A stretch of 64,000 bases of DNA, taken from assembly GCF_000970305.1 (NCBI RefSeq), contig NZ_CP009517.1, positions 3,472,001 through 3,536,000 on the forward strand, read 5' to 3'. Below are positions 9,395-14,872 of this stretch, piece by piece. Made by a program: the position numbers and the translations under genes. The first letter of the stretch is position 1; the number at the start of each line of letters is the position of its first letter. The notes beneath the pieces were generated by a model. It had not been told where the DNA came from and did no database searches. It saw only the letters and a list, made by a program, of their open reading frames with translations. This DNA comes from Methanosarcina barkeri 3 (GTDB lineage Archaea; Halobacteriota; Methanosarcinia; Methanosarcinales; Methanosarcinaceae).

Positions 9395-10444
9395 TCAGTA
9401 GTCGATCTGTTCTGTTTCTTTTATCTTTTCCTTGAACAGCGTATATGCCCACAGCTGGTAGATAATAACTATGGGTACAAATACCAATGCTCCTCCAAGC
9501 ATGATGCTCAGGGTCATGTGGCTTGATGCTGCTTCAAAGATATCTATGCCGTAATCAGGAGAAATAGATGACTTAAGCATATAAGGATAAATGCTTGCAA
9601 GTCCGCTTTCAACAATGAAAAGAAGAGTCAGGAGATTACTGCAAAAGGCCGGAAACCCCCTTCCCTTTTTTGCAAAGAACATCGAAAGGACAGCTCCCAC
9701 TACAGCAAGAACTGGCAATAAATACAGAGCTGGCGTGGCTGAATAGTTGGTTGTGAAACCTTCTATACCCACAAAAGAATATACTAGATATATCAGAGAC
9801 AGTATAAATACAATAAGAGTGCTCTTCTTTGCCAGGTTACCTGCTTTTGCAGCTATGGCTCCTTCTGTCTTGACATTGATCCAGAGCGCACCTGAAGTAA
9901 CACTCATAAACACAAACAGGACACCACCTATCAACGCATATGGGCTGAAGAGTCCAGGAAGGGTACCTGTATAAACTCCTCCTGAAGCGATTTCGAGTCC
10001 CTTGAAGAAGTTCGCAAATGCAACTCCCAAAACCAGAGAAATCAGCAGGCTTCCAACGAACCATCCCCAAGCAAAGGCTTTCTGTATCTGGGGATTCTCG
10101 TCCTTGTGAAGATATTCCACCGAAACGCCCCTTGCAATTAATCCGATAAGCAGTAACATCATAGGAAGATAAAGGAAAGTAAACATCTTCGAAAACACCA
10201 GAGGAAATGCAGCAAACGTTCCACCTGCAGCCAGAATGAGCCATACCTCATTGCCGCCCCAGAAGGGACCAACAGAGCTCTGGATTTGTGTTCTCTGCAC
10301 CTCATCTGTGGCAATAAAAGGCAACAGAAGACCTGCTCCGAGGGAAAACGAGTCTGCAATGAAGTAAACTCCCCATATAACACACCACAGGAAGAACCAG
10401 ATTACAGCAAGCATATCATGGGTAAGGAAATCAAACATTTTCAC
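9395..10444 (-). CDS. cydB: Cytochrome bd oxidase subunit II
   Basis: Membrane subunit II of cytochrome bd quinol-type oxidase, which reduces O2 to water with no proton pumping. The 349-aa protein begins MKMFDFLTHDMLAVIWFFLWCVIWGVYFIADSF, with multiple hydrophobic helices and the conserved NEVWLILAAGGTFAAFPLVF segment after helix 2. Its start overlaps the cydA stop by 4 nt (ATGA type), so the two are translationally coupled in a cydAB operon. In a methanogen the electron donor would have to be methanophenazine or another membrane carrier; this is inference. Confidence 0.93.
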   Translation of the reverse strand: MKMFDFLTHDMLAVIWFFLWCVIWGVYFIADSFSLGAGLLLPFIATDEVQRTQIQSSVGPFWGGNEVWLILAAGGTFAAFPLVFSKMFTFLYLPMMLLLIGLIARGVSVEYLHKDENPQIQKAFAWGWFVGSLLISLVLGVAFANFFKGLEIASGGVYTGTLPGLFSPYALIGGVLFVFMSVTSGALWINVKTEGAIAAKAGNLAKKSTLIVFILSLIYLVYSFVGIEGFTTNYSATPALYLLPVLAVVGAVLSMFFAKKGRGFPAFCSNLLTLLFIVESGLASIYPYMLKSSISPDYGIDIFEAASSHMTLSIMLGGALVFVPIVIIYQLWAYTLFKEKIKETEQIDY

Positions 10445-11757
10445 TCAGCTCCTGTCGCGTTAACTACAGTTTTCTTTATGAGGTATATCTCAAAGACCAT
10501 CAGGATCAGATAGAATGTGCTTATAAGGGCAACACTTAGCAATACATCTGATATGGGAACCGATGAGATACCATTTGCTGTCTTTAATAGACCATATACC
10601 AGCCACGGTTGCCTCCCTACCTCAGCTACGATCCAGCCAGCAGTGATGGCAATATACGGAAGAGGGATAGACCATATCAGCAACTTTAGATACTTGTCTG
10701 ATGTGTACAATTTGCCTGACTTTTGAAGATATAAGCCTAAAAGAGCCTCTACGATAAACAAAGACCCAAGAATTGTCATCAGTCTGAAGCTCCAGAATAT
10801 CATTCCTACAGGTGGTAATTCATCCTGATGTAGCTGATTAAGTCCTGTTATTTTTCCGCTGAAACTTCCTGTATACAGGAAACTTGCAAGACCTGGAATT
10901 CCCAGCAACTGAACACTATTGGAACCAGTACTTGAATCAGGTACCTGTATCAGGTACATGGGCACTTTTGAACCTGTTTCCCATATTGCATCCATTGCCG
11001 CTCCTTTAGCAGGCTGAAGTTCAGTAACATATTGCGCATAACCATGGCCAAGAACTGGAAGCATGACTGCAGTAGCTAATGCTATGGTAACTGCTATGCT
11101 GAAAGACTTCTTGAATACTTTACTGTTGTTTCCTTTAAGGAAATGATATGCACAAATTCCCATGATCAGGAACGCTGTCAACAGGTAAGCTGAAAGCAAA
11201 GTGTGTACCAGCATGTACCATACATAGCCGTTTGTAATAAGAGCAAAGAAATCTGTCATAACGACTTTGCTTCCGTCAGCAGCCATCTCATAGCCGACTG
11301 GATTCTGCATAAAACCGTTAGCAGTAATAATCCATAATGAAGATATGTTAGTTCCCAGAGCAACCATCCACATGGAAAATGTCTTTAGTTTCTGACGGTT
11401 GCGGTCCAGGAATATCCATGCACCAAAGAAAGTACCTTCAAGGAAGAAAGCCAGTAATGCTTCCACAGCTAAAGGCGGTCCAAAAACATCTCCCATGAAT
11501 TCCGCATAGGCACCCCAATTTGTCCCAAACTGGAAAGTCAGTGTAAGACCTGATACCAGACCTACTGCAAAGTTTATCTTGAATACCCTACCCCAGAAAT
11601 CGGCCATCTTTCGCCAGGTTTCATCTTTGTTCCTGTAGTACATTGTTTCCATGCTTGCCACTAACAGTGCAAGTCCCAGTGTTAGTGGAACGAATATGAA
11701 ATGGAATGCAGCTGTTATAGCAAACTGAAGCCGACTTAATAAAAGTAACTCAACCAT
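10441..11757 (-). CDS. cydA: Cytochrome bd oxidase subunit I
   Basis: Haem-bearing subunit I of cytochrome bd oxidase (438 aa, the short-Q-loop length). His19 in RLQFAITAAFHF corresponds to the haem b595 ligand. FFLEGTFFGAWIFLDRN, the IITANGFMQNPVGY loop and the GRQPW motif are all diagnostic. Start ATG follows a GAGGG Shine-Dalgarno. A Fur/PerR-like gene lies 234 nt upstream on the same strand, suggesting oxidative-stress or metal control. A short diverged copy of this gene's 5' end is found at about 14340-14382. Confidence 0.95.
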   Translation of the reverse strand: MVELLLLSRLQFAITAAFHFIFVPLTLGLALLVASMETMYYRNKDETWRKMADFWGRVFKINFAVGLVSGLTLTFQFGTNWGAYAEFMGDVFGPPLAVEALLAFFLEGTFFGAWIFLDRNRQKLKTFSMWMVALGTNISSLWIITANGFMQNPVGYEMAADGSKVVMTDFFALITNGYVWYMLVHTLLSAYLLTAFLIMGICAYHFLKGNNSKVFKKSFSIAVTIALATAVMLPVLGHGYAQYVTELQPAKGAAMDAIWETGSKVPMYLIQVPDSSTGSNSVQLLGIPGLASFLYTGSFSGKITGLNQLHQDELPPVGMIFWSFRLMTILGSLFIVEALLGLYLQKSGKLYTSDKYLKLLIWSIPLPYIAITAGWIVAEVGRQPWLVYGLLKTANGISSVPISDVLLSVALISTFYLILMVFEIYLIKKTVVNATGAE

Positions 11758-11991
11758 TCATTATCCCTCGTTTTACCTCGTGCTATTACTTACAGCACAG
11801 GATCATATTTGCGCTGAAGCAAGACGATGTTCTTCTGTCCTCAACTTGCAGTTAATCTTCATGCTTAATCTCATCATTGAGAACCTGAAGCATAATGCTG
11901 TATGCCACAGGATCTTTAACTTTAACCTTCTGGAGAATATACCACTATATACCAGGACAACATACTGTTTTTCTTTGATATTCTGCTCAAT

Positions 11992-12576
11992 TTATGTATT
12001 CTCCTCAGACTTTTTAGATTCCTTAGACTCCATAAGTTCCTTAGACTCCATAGATTCCTTAGACTCCATAGATTCCTTAGACTCCATAGATTCCTTAGAC
12101 TCCATAGATTCCTTAGACTCCATAGATTCCTTAGACTCCATAGATTCCTTAGACTCCATAGATTCCTTAGACTCCATAGATTCCTTACATTTTTTACAGA
12201 CACCATAAAAGTTAGTGCTGGTTGAAACAATAGTAAATCCTTCTATTTCCTCAGCTATCTTCATTGAGTAGTCCAATAATTGTTCCGAATTGAAATCCTC
12301 CATACTTCCGCATTCCCTGCAGATTAGATGGTGATGAGGAATGAAATTCGCTTCAAATCTTGAGACTCCTTTTACATTCACCTCCTCCAGTAACCCTTTC
12401 TCCGTAAGGAATTTGAGATTTTTATATACGGTAGCCTTGCTTATACGCGTCAGTTTTTGTCTAACCCCATCATAAACTTCATCTACAGTGGGATGACCAT
12501 CGTGTTCACGCAGGAAAGCAAGTATTTCAACTCTCTGATTTGTGTATTTCATGCCAGCTTTGTCTGTGGGCTTCAT
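11992..12576 (-). CDS. Fur/PerR-type regulator with hexapeptide-repeat tail
   Basis: Metal- or peroxide-sensing repressor. A winged helix occupies residues ~1-80 (KYTNQRVEILAFL..HPTVDEVY, RISKATVYKNLKFL), followed by HHHLICRECGSMEDF and CKKC, the usual regulatory and structural zinc Cys pairs. The Fur fold ends near residue ~135. The last ~60 residues are a pure (SMESKE)n repeat, encoded by nine 18-bp units, ending KKSEENT. Such a tail is not part of the family. Start ATG has AGGTGG 7 nt upstream. Location ahead of cydAB suggests it controls them. Confidence 0.88.
   Translation of the reverse strand: MKPTDKAGMKYTNQRVEILAFLREHDGHPTVDEVYDGVRQKLTRISKATVYKNLKFLTEKGLLEEVNVKGVSRFEANFIPHHHLICRECGSMEDFNSEQLLDYSMKIAEEIEGFTIVSTSTNFYGVCKKCKESMESKESMESKESMESKESMESKESMESKESMESKESMESKESMESKELMESKESKKSEENT
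12017..12190. repeat. 18-bp minisatellite inside the Fur-like gene
   Basis: Nine near-perfect copies of TAGATTCCTTAGACTCCA (plus-strand reading) in frame, giving (SMESKE)n. Units are almost identical at DNA level, which implies recent expansion. Copy number can change in steps of six residues without frameshift. Confidence 0.95.
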
Positions 12577-13045
12577 TGCCGTCCACCTAAACTATCTGTG
12601 AAAGCAGATTTACCTAGATATATATGATATCCATTACTAAATGATATTTATTATTATTTAACAATTACTATCAATGACTTTATTTCTTTACTTAGAGAAG
12701 TCTTGCAACTATATTATTTTCCTAAAGTTGTAGCCTGAAGTTTCCCCACTAAAAGTACAGTTAAAGAGCAGTAGTTTTGGACAGAACCTGCTAGGACAAG
12801 TAGCTTTGGACAGAACCTGCTAGGGCAAGTAGCTTTGGACAGAACCTGCTAGGACAAGTAGCTTTGGACAGAACTTGCTAGAGCAAAATTGTACAATCTT
12901 TTAAGTAAAATTCACAATTGTTTGCAACATTAATTGGAAAAGAAATCTAAATTTCATTGTACATTTGGATACAACGGTCTCAAATTTGTACGATTTACCT
13001 ATATTATTTACTAATAAACTTCTGAACTAACCTGCATCCCTGTAC
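12577..13045. other. Spacer upstream of the Fur-like gene
   Basis: Nearly 470 bp without a gene. AT-rich sequence next to the Fur-like start could hold its promoter, for example ATATATATGAT-like sequence near 12615-12630. The middle is occupied by the 29-bp tandem array listed separately. Confidence 0.5.
12771..12886. repeat. 29-bp tandem repeat, four copies
   Basis: Units begin at 12771, 12800, 12829 and 12858, with consensus GTAGCTTTGGACAGAACC followed by TGCTAGGACAA. They differ by one to three bases each. The array sits between the aRF1 paralogue stop and the Fur-like gene. Confidence 0.9.
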
Positions 13046-14299
13046 TTACCCTAACACTCCTGTACTATATCTAAGGACTGCAGCAATGCCTCCAAAGGCT
13101 ATAATAAGTTGAGAACCTTCGTCAAAATCCGTTGATATAAAAGCAATTCTTGCATTGCCTTTATCAGCGAGTTCCGAGAATTCACTAACGATATCAATAA
13201 CATCCATGACTTCAAGTGCAGAACCACATTCAGGACAATTTCCTGCAACAGGAACAGCTTCATCTGGTTTCCATTTTCTTGTCAGTTTATTCTCATATCC
13301 GCAAACACTGCATTTGAGAGTTACTCTTTCAGATCGCAGGTTTTCAGAAAATAAAAGCACATCAACTGCCTTTATTTCAAGGTTCACCCGTACATTATCT
13401 TCTCCATAAGATATTTTACCAGACTCAGTAGCAAGCTCTTTAAAAAACAGTTCCATGTCTTTCTTTTGCTTAATTAAGTCAATACCCTGGAGAGTGTCCT
13501 CTGCTGCATTTATTAATTCAGAAAAACCCGATTCGTCCGTATACCCCGTATCGAACAATCCAAGAACCTTTTTCTGAAGCTCATAATGTAGAAATCCACC
13601 TTCACCGAACTCTTCTTTAGTTGGAGAATGCCCTCCTATAAGAATGCCTTTAAGTTCAGCTGGCTCCACTTCAAGAAATGCCTCATTTGCAGCATCTCCG
13701 ATTCTTTTGTAGAAATCATGAATAGCAATGCGTCTGAGCTGTTCAAAGCGATGTGCACTCTGACCTCCTTTTCTTTGTTTGCCAGGGACAGTAGAGTGGA
13801 GATGCTTAATAACTTCAGTTTGCCTACCTACGAGCGTTCCGATTGTTGCTTCTCTTAAATCCAGAAGTATAAGTCCATAAGTACTGCACTCTCTGAGCAT
13901 TTTCTCAAGGGGCTCAAGATAAAAAACGGAATCACAGTGATATATGTAATCTACAACAGGTTCCGGAGGAATAATAACTTCATTTACCATGCCTGTCCTG
14001 TTAGTTCCGGTATCGACAGGCCCTGCAAAATAAACTATCCCGTTTTCTGGTACTTTGTTAAGCGATCTTAACTTTGCCAACAGAAAATCAAGTGTTCCCT
14101 GTACGTTATTGCCGGTAAGTTTAGACTTAATGTCCGAAGACTGCTCATGCTCTTCTCTCAAATGATTTGCAACATCTGAAATCTGTATATCAGAAGGAAT
14201 ATAAAGGGAAATTAATTCTATGCTCTTTCCACCTTTATTTCTCAGGATCTCAAGCTTCTTTTTTAATACATATTTTTCATACGTACAGTATTCAGCCGT
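13046..14299 (-). CDS. Divergent aRF1 (class I release factor) paralogue, start codon lost or non-canonical
   Basis: Archaeal peptide chain release factor 1 family. Seen: the GGQ peptidyl-hydrolysis motif (GKQRKGGQSAHRFEQLR), a YxCxxxF motif (YHCDSVF), and a C-terminal zinc-ribbon insert (CSVCGYEN..CPECG). NIKS, the stop-codon-reading motif, is changed to DIKS. The frame is open from 14317, and the N-terminal aRF1 helix (YEKYVLKKKLEILRNKGG, ELISLYIPSD) is readable. No ATG, GTG or TTG precedes it. At the expected start (14297-14299) stands ACG, 8 nt after AGGAGG. The only usual start is TTG 14161, which would remove about 46 N-terminal residues. From ACG the protein is 417 aa, the normal aRF1 length. 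It could be a fresh pseudogene, a non-AUG-started gene, or a truncated protein. Confidence 0.8.
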   Translation of the reverse strand, partial: TAEYCTYEKYVLKKKLEILRNKGGKSIELISLYIPSDIQISDVANHLREEHEQSSDIKSKLTGNNVQGTLDFLLAKLRSLNKVPENGIVYFAGPVDTGTNRTGMVNEVIIPPEPVVDYIYHCDSVFYLEPLEKMLRECSTYGLILLDLREATIGTLVGRQTEVIKHLHSTVPGKQRKGGQSAHRFEQLRRIAIHDFYKRIGDAANEAFLEVEPAELKGILIGGHSPTKEEFGEGGFLHYELQKKVLGLFDTGYTDESGFSELINAAEDTLQGIDLIKQKKDMELFFKELATESGKISYGEDNVRVNLEIKAVDVLLFSENLRSERVTLKCSVCGYENKLTRKWKPDEAVPVAGNCPECGSALEVMDVIDIVSEFSELADKGNARIAFISTDFDEGSQLIIAFGGIAAVLRYSTGVLG

Positions 14300-14382
14300 T
14301 CCGACTTCCTCCTTTTCTCATAAGCATGCAACTTAGTTGTTATGGCAAACTGAGGTCGAATTAATAACAGTAATTCAACCAT
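14263..14382 (-). pseudogene. Relic of cydA 5' end running into the aRF1 paralogue
   Basis: A 39-codon frame starts MVELLLLIRPQFAIT, matching the first 15 codons of the intact cydA (MVELLLLSRLQFAIT) at 13 of 15 residues and clearly at DNA level. Similarity ends abruptly after that. The frame then passes through the AGGAGG and N-terminal region of the aRF1 paralogue in another frame and stops at TAA 14263-14265. It is a truncated second cydA, so this junction marks a past rearrangement. Confidence 0.8.
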
Positions 14383-14872
14383 TTTTACCCCTTAATTTTA
14401 TTTGCACCAGGCAGTTATTACGACAAGGAAAACACTGACAATTGTAAAGACCACCGACAATTACCATATCTACATAGATTTATATTTATTAGAGTAAATT
14501 TGCAAGTACACAATGACTTTGCACATAAAAATCATGAAAAGAACAGAGTTCATGGACATAATATATCCATGAACCATTGCACACGATCAATATTTGCACC
14601 GGAGCAAGTCGAGATCTTCCTTCAAAGCCTCACTGTTCTGGCGCCCGTTTTTGTTGATCCGTCAGTTTTGTCTTGGTGGTATAAGCTCATTCGCTCTGAT
14701 CCGTTCGTTTTAGTCTGTTCTCTAATTTTTTGTGGGGTTACAACCTATAATTATTCCCAAACTTATTTAAAATAAATTATATGAAAAATTGGTTCTGAAC
14801 AAATAATATTTTCAGGTAAAATGTTTTATTAGTAAACAACATTAAAATATTAATTATGACTATAAATTTTTC
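14383..14872. other. Spacer with diverged copy of the cydA upstream region
   Basis: Part of this spacer (about 14580-14625: GATCAATATTTGCACCGG, AGCAAGTCGA) aligns with the region just upstream of the intact cydA (about 11806-11845: GATCATATTTGCGCTG, AGCAAGACGA). It therefore extends the cydA duplication beyond the coding relic. The remaining bases are AT-rich with no gene seen. Confidence 0.55.
14548..14574. promoter_or_regulatory. 9-bp perfect inverted repeat upstream of the cydA relic
   Basis: GTTCATGGA (14548-14556) and TCCATGAAC (14566-14574) are perfect arms around a 9-bp AT spacer. It could be an operator for the relic/aRF1 transcript or an RNA hairpin. Confidence 0.4.

What the first reader, a model, noticed from the sequence alone, without database searches (positions are those of the whole stretch)
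13046..14320. aRF1 paralogue with ACG where its start codon should be
The whole aRF1 frame, including the N-terminal domain, is open back to the stop at 14318-14320, but has no ATG, GTG or TTG before residue 47. At the place where a normal aRF1 would begin there is an AGGAGG, 8 nt, then ACG GCT GAA; one base change (ATG to ACG) explains it. GGQ and YxCxxxF are intact, while NIKS has become DIKS. Methanosarcina reads UAG as pyrrolysine in some genes, and second aRF1 copies are known in the genus, so a release factor with altered stop recognition and low or non-AUG expression is biologically interesting. Alternatives are a very young pseudogene or an N-truncated protein from TTG 14161.
Basis: partly seen in the sequence, partly recalled or inferred. 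Interest (0 to 1): 0.78.

Follow-up and report, generated by a model that had tools for sequence, protein, structure and literature searches.

The report
Release-factor gene conserved with ACG start
A spare copy of the archaeal protein that ends translation has ACG where its start codon should be in four related methane-making archaea, yet natural selection still protects the protein, so the cell very probably starts making it at a codon textbooks do not count as a start.

Summary
The - strand frame 14299-13046 is a full-length aRF1/eRF1-type release factor (557 bits; cut-off 234.7), with ACG at 14299-14297, AGGAGG 8 nt upstream, and no ATG/GTG/TTG before codon 47.

It is neither a sequencing error nor a young pseudogene. 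The same ACG stands in four species: the window's, M. spelaei, M. vacuolata Z-761 and M. barkeri MS (the last two named by identical plasmids). They form one supported clade; ten other orthologues have ATG, or GTG once. Selection did not relax after the change: dN/dS is 0.21 in the ACG clade and 0.23 elsewhere, and omega = 1 is rejected by 2dlnL = 110. Codons 2-20, upstream of every canonical start, are also constrained (0.07, P about 0.01), but this subset was chosen after seeing the data. The best explanation is initiation at ACG aided by the strong SD; no expression data exist here.

DIKS is not special: NIKS is degenerate across the aRF1-2 family, whose codon-reading domain is relaxed (0.44) while the GGQ domain is not (0.11).

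A control of 251 orthologue pairs found another non-canonical start: a DUF255-type gene with CTG in 24 of 29 Methanosarcina, never ATG.

The parts
13046..14299 (-). aRF1-2 coding frame from ACG to TAA, 417 codons plus stop
   Evidence: TIGR03676 557 bits, cut-off 234.7; Pfam eRF1_1, eRF1_2 and eRF1_3 all over cut-off; dN/dS 0.19-0.21 in the ACG clade
14297..14299 (-). ACG at the start-codon position
   Evidence: ACG in 4 species, ATG in 9 and GTG in 1 of the 14 orthologues used
14308..14313 (-). Shine-Dalgarno AGGAGG, 8 nt from ACG; same spacing as in most ATG relatives
   Evidence: anti-SD CCTCCT in own genome
14318..14320 (-). in-frame stop TGA that bounds the frame upstream
14159..14161 (-). 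TTG, codon 47, first canonical start codon in frame; no SD; an ordinary Leu codon in all four ACG species
14123..14134 (-). DIKS, replacing NIKS (stop-codon recognition loop)
13760..13768 (-). GGQ motif, peptidyl-tRNA hydrolysis
   Evidence: present in all 14 orthologues
13895..14296 (-). N domain (codons 2-135), relaxed in the family, omega 0.44
13490..13894 (-). M domain (codons 136-270), constrained, omega 0.11
14335..14392 (-). remnant of the 5' end of cydA lying upstream of the SD in the ACG clade only
   Evidence: blastn 83% over 59 nt, E 8e-13; in all four ACG species, not upstream of the ATG copies of G004 or M. acetivorans
14292..14321 (-). out-of-frame mini-ORF ATG AGA AAA GGA GGA AGT CGG AAC GGC TGA spanning the SD and ACG
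9395..12576 (-). downstream neighbours fur (11992-12576), cydA (10441-11757), cydB (9395-10444)
   Evidence: also near aRF1-2 in several relatives including M. acetivorans

Best explanation
This is a working gene for the second archaeal release factor of Methanosarcina (aRF1-2). Its start changed once from ATG to ACG in the common ancestor of the M. barkeri / M. vacuolata / M. spelaei group and has stayed ACG since. Shown: the ACG is conserved in four species, and the protein has stayed under undiminished purifying selection. Inferred: the strong AGGAGG 8 nt upstream places the 30S subunit on ACG, the initiator tRNA pairs through two of three bases, and methionine is inserted, at a lower rate than at AUG. 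Inferred, less sure (about 0.35): the product keeps a working GGQ hydrolase but reads stop codons poorly or not at all, so it acts as a low-level release or ribosome-rescue factor beside the main aRF1, for which a weak start would be tolerable or useful.
For: ACG with SD at the same place in four species that form one clade (ultrafast bootstrap 95-100). Species named by 100% plasmid identity: M. barkeri MS, M. vacuolata Z-761; M. spelaei by record title. Branch model: omega 0.23 background, 0.13 stem, 0.21 ACG clade, no difference (P 0.57); omega = 1 in the ACG clade rejected, 2dlnL 110. Codons 2-20, upstream of any canonical start: omega 0.07, P 0.007-0.009. Codons 2-46 evolve at the same omega in the ACG clade as in the ATG lineages (0.49 and 0.47, P 0.95). 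ACG is the only one-base neighbour of ATG shared by all four between the upstream stop and codon 13. Real decay looks different: G004 keeps a broken relic beside cydA and G022 only the first 80 codons. Precedent in the genus: a DUF255-type gene with SD GGAGGG and CTG (24) or TTG (5), never ATG, in 29 orthologues.
Against: No transcript, ribosome-profiling or N-terminal peptide data were available. aIF1 disfavours non-canonical starts in Sulfolobus (reported in PMC8211752 and PMC6237735), UUG failed as a start in a haloarchaeal reporter (PMC4574771), and ACG is not a listed start of NCBI table 11 (own knowledge). Codons 2-46 as a block are not significantly below omega = 1 in the ACG clade (P 0.11-0.15), and the 2-20 subset was chosen after seeing the data. 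Selection on the protein does not by itself locate the start.
Confidence: 0.64

Rival explanations
1. An N-truncated protein of 371 residues starting at TTG 14161 (codon 47), without the first part of the codon-recognition domain.
For: TTG 47 is the first canonical start and is present in all four ACG species; codons 2-46 as a block are only weakly constrained (omega 0.44-0.49).
Against: No SD before TTG 47; it is an ordinary conserved Leu codon. Codons 2-20 are constrained (omega 0.07). No indel or stop in codons 2-46 in any of four lineages. The SD stays where it serves ACG. Omega of 2-46 equals that of the ATG-started relatives.
Confidence: 0.12
2. Initiation in frame or by coupling at another place: the upstream mini-ORF ATG (-22) with re-initiation at ACG, or, in M. 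vacuolata and M. barkeri MS, an in-frame ATG at -21 whose third codon is UAG and could be read as pyrrolysine (ATG AGA TAG GAG GAA GTC GAA ACG).
For: ATG 20-22 nt upstream is present in all 15 orthologues looked at; in M. vacuolata and M. barkeri MS it is in frame and separated only by UAG; PylS is present in all four ACG species.
Against: In the window and M. spelaei the ATG is out of frame by one base, so this cannot explain the shared ACG. No SD stands before this ATG. The mini-ORF differs between species (MRKGGSRNG or MR).
Confidence: 0.11
3. A pseudogene that lost its start codon and is decaying.
For: Non-canonical start; aRF1-2 is absent from about half of the genus and is a relic in G004 and G022.
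Against: Open frame in four species at synonymous divergence up to 0.33; omega 0.21 with omega = 1 rejected by 2dlnL 110; no change in omega after the ACG event.
Confidence: 0.04
4. C-to-U editing of the transcript turns ACG into AUG.
For: Such editing restores AUG starts in plant organelles (own knowledge); an intact gene with ACG is what it would look like in DNA.
Against: No mRNA C-to-U editing is known to me in archaea; ordinary near-cognate initiation needs no new machinery, and a DUF255-type gene in the genus starts at CTG, which editing of C-to-U type would turn into TTG, not AUG.
Confidence: 0.03
5. -1 frameshift from the cydA-derived leader ORF (ATG 14382) into the aRF1 frame.
For: In the window this leader ORF is open across the ACG (39 codons).
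Against: Its ATG is lost in M. spelaei and M. vacuolata, and the leader ends at -63 in M. barkeri MS; the frame relation is not conserved.
Confidence: 0.02

Closest known systems
aRF1-2 of Methanosarcina (second aRF1 homologue; Alkalaeva et al. 2009, as reported in PMC2943090 and PMC2933860)
   Same: Orthologous gene family: intact GGQ, degenerate stop-recognition domain. The tested second copy had no release activity on any stop codon (reported).
   Different: The start codon is ACG in this clade. One review says only one homologue is found in M. barkeri (PMC2933860), another says M. barkeri has two (PMC2943090). A copy without a canonical start could explain the discrepancy (inference).
Canonical archaeal aRF1 (aRF1-1) of the same genome
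   Same: Same three-domain family, 67% identical protein.
   Different: aRF1-1 has ATG, invariant NIKS and an N domain at omega 0.04 against 0.44 in aRF1-2.
Genes with non-canonical starts that limit their own product, such as E. coli infC (AUU) (own knowledge)
   Same: A translation factor gene with a rare start codon and strong SD.
   Different: Codon is ACG; no regulation has been shown here.
Class I factors with relaxed codon reading used for ribosome rescue, such as pelota/Dom34 in archaea
   Same: eRF1-type central and C-terminal domains.
   Different: aRF1-2 keeps GGQ, and its pelota match is far below that family's cut-off (48 against 178 bits).

Membership tests
aRF1/eRF1 class I release factor (TIGR03676) | whole-protein score over the curated cut-off | tested here: met
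   557 bits against 234.7
aRF1/eRF1 class I release factor (TIGR03676) | GGQ motif | tested here: met
   GGQ in all 14 orthologues
aRF1/eRF1 class I release factor (TIGR03676) | NIKS stop-recognition motif | tested here: not met
   DIKS here; variable in the aRF1-2 family. Family membership rests on the whole-protein model; omnipotent stop reading is not claimed
aRF1/eRF1 class I release factor (TIGR03676) | peptide release at stop codons | not testable with these tools
   Literature reports no activity for the second Methanosarcina copy (PMC2943090, PMC2933860)
aRF1-2 orthologue group of Methanosarcina | groups with the second copies, not with aRF1-1 | tested here: met
   FastTree support 0.999-1.0 for the aRF1-2 group; 80-95% identity against 66-69% to aRF1-1
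Gene with a non-canonical start codon | no ATG/GTG/TTG where orthologues start, with conservation reaching to that codon | tested here: met
   codons 2-20 omega 0.07
Gene with a non-canonical start codon | ribosomes start at that codon | not testable with these tools
   needs N-terminal proteomics or initiation profiling
Pseudogene | relaxed selection or further disruptions | tested here: not met
   omega 0.21, no stops or frameshifts in four species
Pelota/Dom34 | score over the pelota cut-off | tested here: not met
   48.1 against 177.65 bits

The most novel reading that the evidence does not exclude
The ACG is kept as a device, not merely tolerated. Output of this second release factor is set by a deliberately poor start, so its level follows the stringency of initiation. 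In the M. barkeri / M. vacuolata branch it may also follow how often UAG is read as pyrrolysine, through the in-frame ATG AGA TAG just upstream. That would be an archaeal counterpart of the self-limiting start of infC and the recoded stop of prfB.
Probability: 0.1. Interest if true: 0.82.

Novelty: new variant of a known kind. Interest (0 to 1): 0.58.

Why it matters
Gene finders allow only ATG, GTG and TTG (and, rarely, CTG, ATT, ATC or ATA) in archaea, so a gene like this is called truncated, pseudo or absent. That may be why reviews disagree on whether M. barkeri has a second release factor. If ACG is confirmed as the start, it would be, to my knowledge, an unusual case of an evolutionarily stable ACG initiator in an archaeon, in a genetically tractable genus, with ATG-bearing sister species as natural controls. 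It also offers a place to ask what the second release factor of pyrrolysine-using methanogens does, since that paralogue keeps its hydrolase motif and loses constraint on its stop-reading domain. The CTG-started DUF255-type gene suggests that strong-SD, non-canonical initiation may be wider in Methanosarcina.

Tried and rejected
Sequencing error: rejected by four species. Frameshift from the cydA-derived leader: its ATG is lost in two species and the frames differ. Translational coupling to a conserved leader peptide: no conserved peptide in the ACG clade. DIKS as a mark of special stop reading: NIKS is variable in the whole family. Conservation of the ACG triplet alone as proof: not claimed, since a neutral triplet could stay unchanged over this tree; the argument rests on dN/dS and on the lack of reversion. 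A functional link to cytochrome bd through co-occurrence: only suggestive (9 of 13 genomes with aRF1-2 have cydA against 5 of 18 without; one-sided Fisher P 0.027, not corrected for relatedness). Structure prediction was not run because family membership was already beyond doubt.

Full report
WHAT IS THERE. On the - strand the frame from the stop TGA 14320-14318 to TAA 13048-13046 is open. It reads GAA AAG GAG GAA GTC GGA ACG GCT GAA TAC..., with AGGAGG at 14313-14308 and ACG at 14299-14297, 8 nt apart. The first ATG/GTG/TTG in frame is TTG 14161, codon 47. The product is a complete aRF1-type factor: TIGR03676 557 bits against a cut-off of 234.7, and all three eRF1 domains over cut-off in Pfam. 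The genome has a second, canonical aRF1 (G000:C1:4522430-4523647), 67% identical.

RELATIVES. All 31 Methanosarcina genomes held were searched. Thirteen carry the second copy (aRF1-2), one of them in two pieces. At the start position ACG stands in four: the window; M. spelaei (L007/L036); G030; and G003. G003 is M. barkeri MS and G030 is M. vacuolata Z-761, judged by 100% identity of their small contigs to the plasmids of those strains, with equal lengths. Of the ten other orthologues used in the alignment, nine have ATG and one GTG. In the gene tree the four ACG genes form one clade, so one change explains them. This excludes a sequencing error and a change private to this genome.

SELECTION. 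Pairwise NG86 over the gene gives omega 0.17-0.19 for the more distant ACG pairs and 0.34 for the closest pair, with dS up to 0.33. A codon-model analysis (own GY94/F3x4 code) gives 0.23 for the ATG lineages, 0.13 for the stem and 0.21 within the ACG clade. The three do not differ (P 0.57), and omega = 1 in the ACG clade is worse by 2dlnL = 110. The protein is therefore made and needed in the ACG species. Reversion to ATG is one transition away and did not happen in any of the four lineages, which suggests that ACG costs little or is preferred (inference).

WHERE DOES TRANSLATION START. Codons 2-20 lie before any canonical start; in the ACG clade their omega is 0.07 (P 0.007-0.009). That subset was chosen after inspection. 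Codons 2-46 as a block are not significantly below 1 (0.44-0.49, P 0.11-0.15), but they behave exactly as in ATG-started relatives (0.47; P for a difference 0.95), which is what is expected if they are still translated. TTG 47 has no SD and is an ordinary Leu codon. Between the upstream stop and codon 13, ACG is the only triplet shared by all four that is one base from ATG. The SD is kept in all four, weakened to AGGGGG in M. barkeri MS. ACG initiation is therefore the best reading. It remains an inference from evolution, not an observation of translation.

THE UPSTREAM REGION. In the ACG clade only, the stretch about 36-93 nt upstream of ACG is a remnant of the 5' end of cydA (83% over 59 nt to the window's own cydA). 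Its ATG survives in the window and in M. barkeri MS but not in M. spelaei or M. vacuolata, and the resulting frames differ, so no leader peptide or frameshift is conserved. An ATG 20-22 nt before the start is present in all orthologues looked at. In M. vacuolata and M. barkeri MS a one-base deletion puts it in frame with aRF1-2 through a single UAG: ATG AGA TAG GAG GAA GTC GAA ACG. As these organisms encode PylS, reading that UAG as pyrrolysine would give an alternative start, but it cannot explain the window and M. spelaei.

CONTROL FOR CHANCE. To see how often conserved coding sequence lacks a canonical start, 400 kb of the window's genome was compared with 400 kb of M. barkeri MS. Of 251 real coding pairs, the long upstream extensions with a coding signature were aRF1-2 and a DUF255/YyaL-like protein of about 700 residues (32 codons; differences by codon position 1, 1, 8). 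A LeuA/AksA-like synthase was a further possible case. The names DUF255/YyaL and LeuA/AksA are my reading of the sequences; they were not checked against a family library. Across the genus the DUF255-type gene has GGAGGGATT-NNN followed by CTG in 24 and TTG in 5 of 29 readable orthologues, never ATG. In one TTG case the codon before is a stop, which fixes the start at that position. So lack of a canonical start is rare, but aRF1-2 is not alone, and CTG initiation with a strong SD looks conserved in the genus.

WHAT THE PROTEIN MAY DO. In aRF1-1 the N domain is the tightest part (omega 0.04). In aRF1-2 it is the loosest (0.44, against 0.11 for the GGQ domain and 0.21 for the C domain); a common omega for N and M domains is rejected (2dlnL 116). 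NIKS varies widely in aRF1-2, the Cys and Phe of YxCxxxF are each lost once, and GGQ never varies. This fits reports that the second Methanosarcina factor shows no release activity at any stop codon (PMC2943090, PMC2933860, both citing Alkalaeva et al. 2009, a paper not held). A release or rescue factor that no longer reads stop codons strictly is a reasonable guess, not shown. Reviews disagree on whether M. barkeri has the second copy: PMC2933860 says one, PMC2943090 says two. A gene without a canonical start could be the cause (inference).

CONTEXT. fur-cydA-cydB lies next to aRF1-2 in the ACG clade, in M. acetivorans and in another relative, and near it in G006. G001 is taken to be M. acetivorans from its genome size (own knowledge). 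In G004, sister to the ACG clade, a broken aRF1-2 relic sits near cydA while an intact ATG copy lies elsewhere. aRF1-2 and cydA co-occur more than expected (P 0.027, not corrected for relatedness).

VERDICT. The gene is real, selected, and most likely started at ACG. It is a new variant (start codon) of a known paralogue, worth a direct test by N-terminal proteomics.

Noticed in passing
L164 and orthologues L165-L193 (G000:C1:about 3677208, - strand; outside the window): DUF255/YyaL-like protein of about 700 residues with SD GGAGGG and CTG (24) or TTG (5), never ATG, at the start in 29 Methanosarcina orthologues: a second conserved non-canonical start.
   Followed up: partly
L194 and orthologues L195-L223 (G000:C1:about 3607081, + strand; outside the window): LeuA/AksA-like synthase: GAGGG followed by ATT (ATA or GTA) TTA TTC conserved in 30 species, with no ATG; start codon unclear.
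   Followed up: partly
L008 and L011, 21 nt before the ACG: In M. vacuolata Z-761 and M. barkeri MS an ATG is in frame with aRF1-2, interrupted only by UAG as third codon (ATG AGA TAG ...), a possible pyrrolysine-dependent alternative start.
   Followed up: partly
14292-14321 and same place in relatives: Mini-ORF M(R/K/G)xGGS(W/R)(N/D)G* overlapping the aRF1-2 start is present in most species with the 22-nt spacing, ending at a TGA that overlaps the start.
   Followed up: no
9395-14392: aRF1-2 next to fur-cydA-cydB in several Methanosarcina, with a cydA 5' remnant upstream of aRF1-2 in the ACG clade; traces of a local rearrangement.
   Followed up: partly
L123 4024-4375 and L122 5431-5667: True aRF1-2 relics: frameshifted and deleted near cydA in G004, first 80 codons only in G022.
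   Followed up: yes
12770-12885: Tandem 29-nt repeats (AGTAGCTTTGGACAGAACCTGCTAGGACA) just downstream of aRF1-2.
   Followed up: no
11992-12230: The Fur gene of the window has a long C-terminal run of KESMES repeats; Fur of relatives is shorter (136-175 residues against 194).
   Followed up: no
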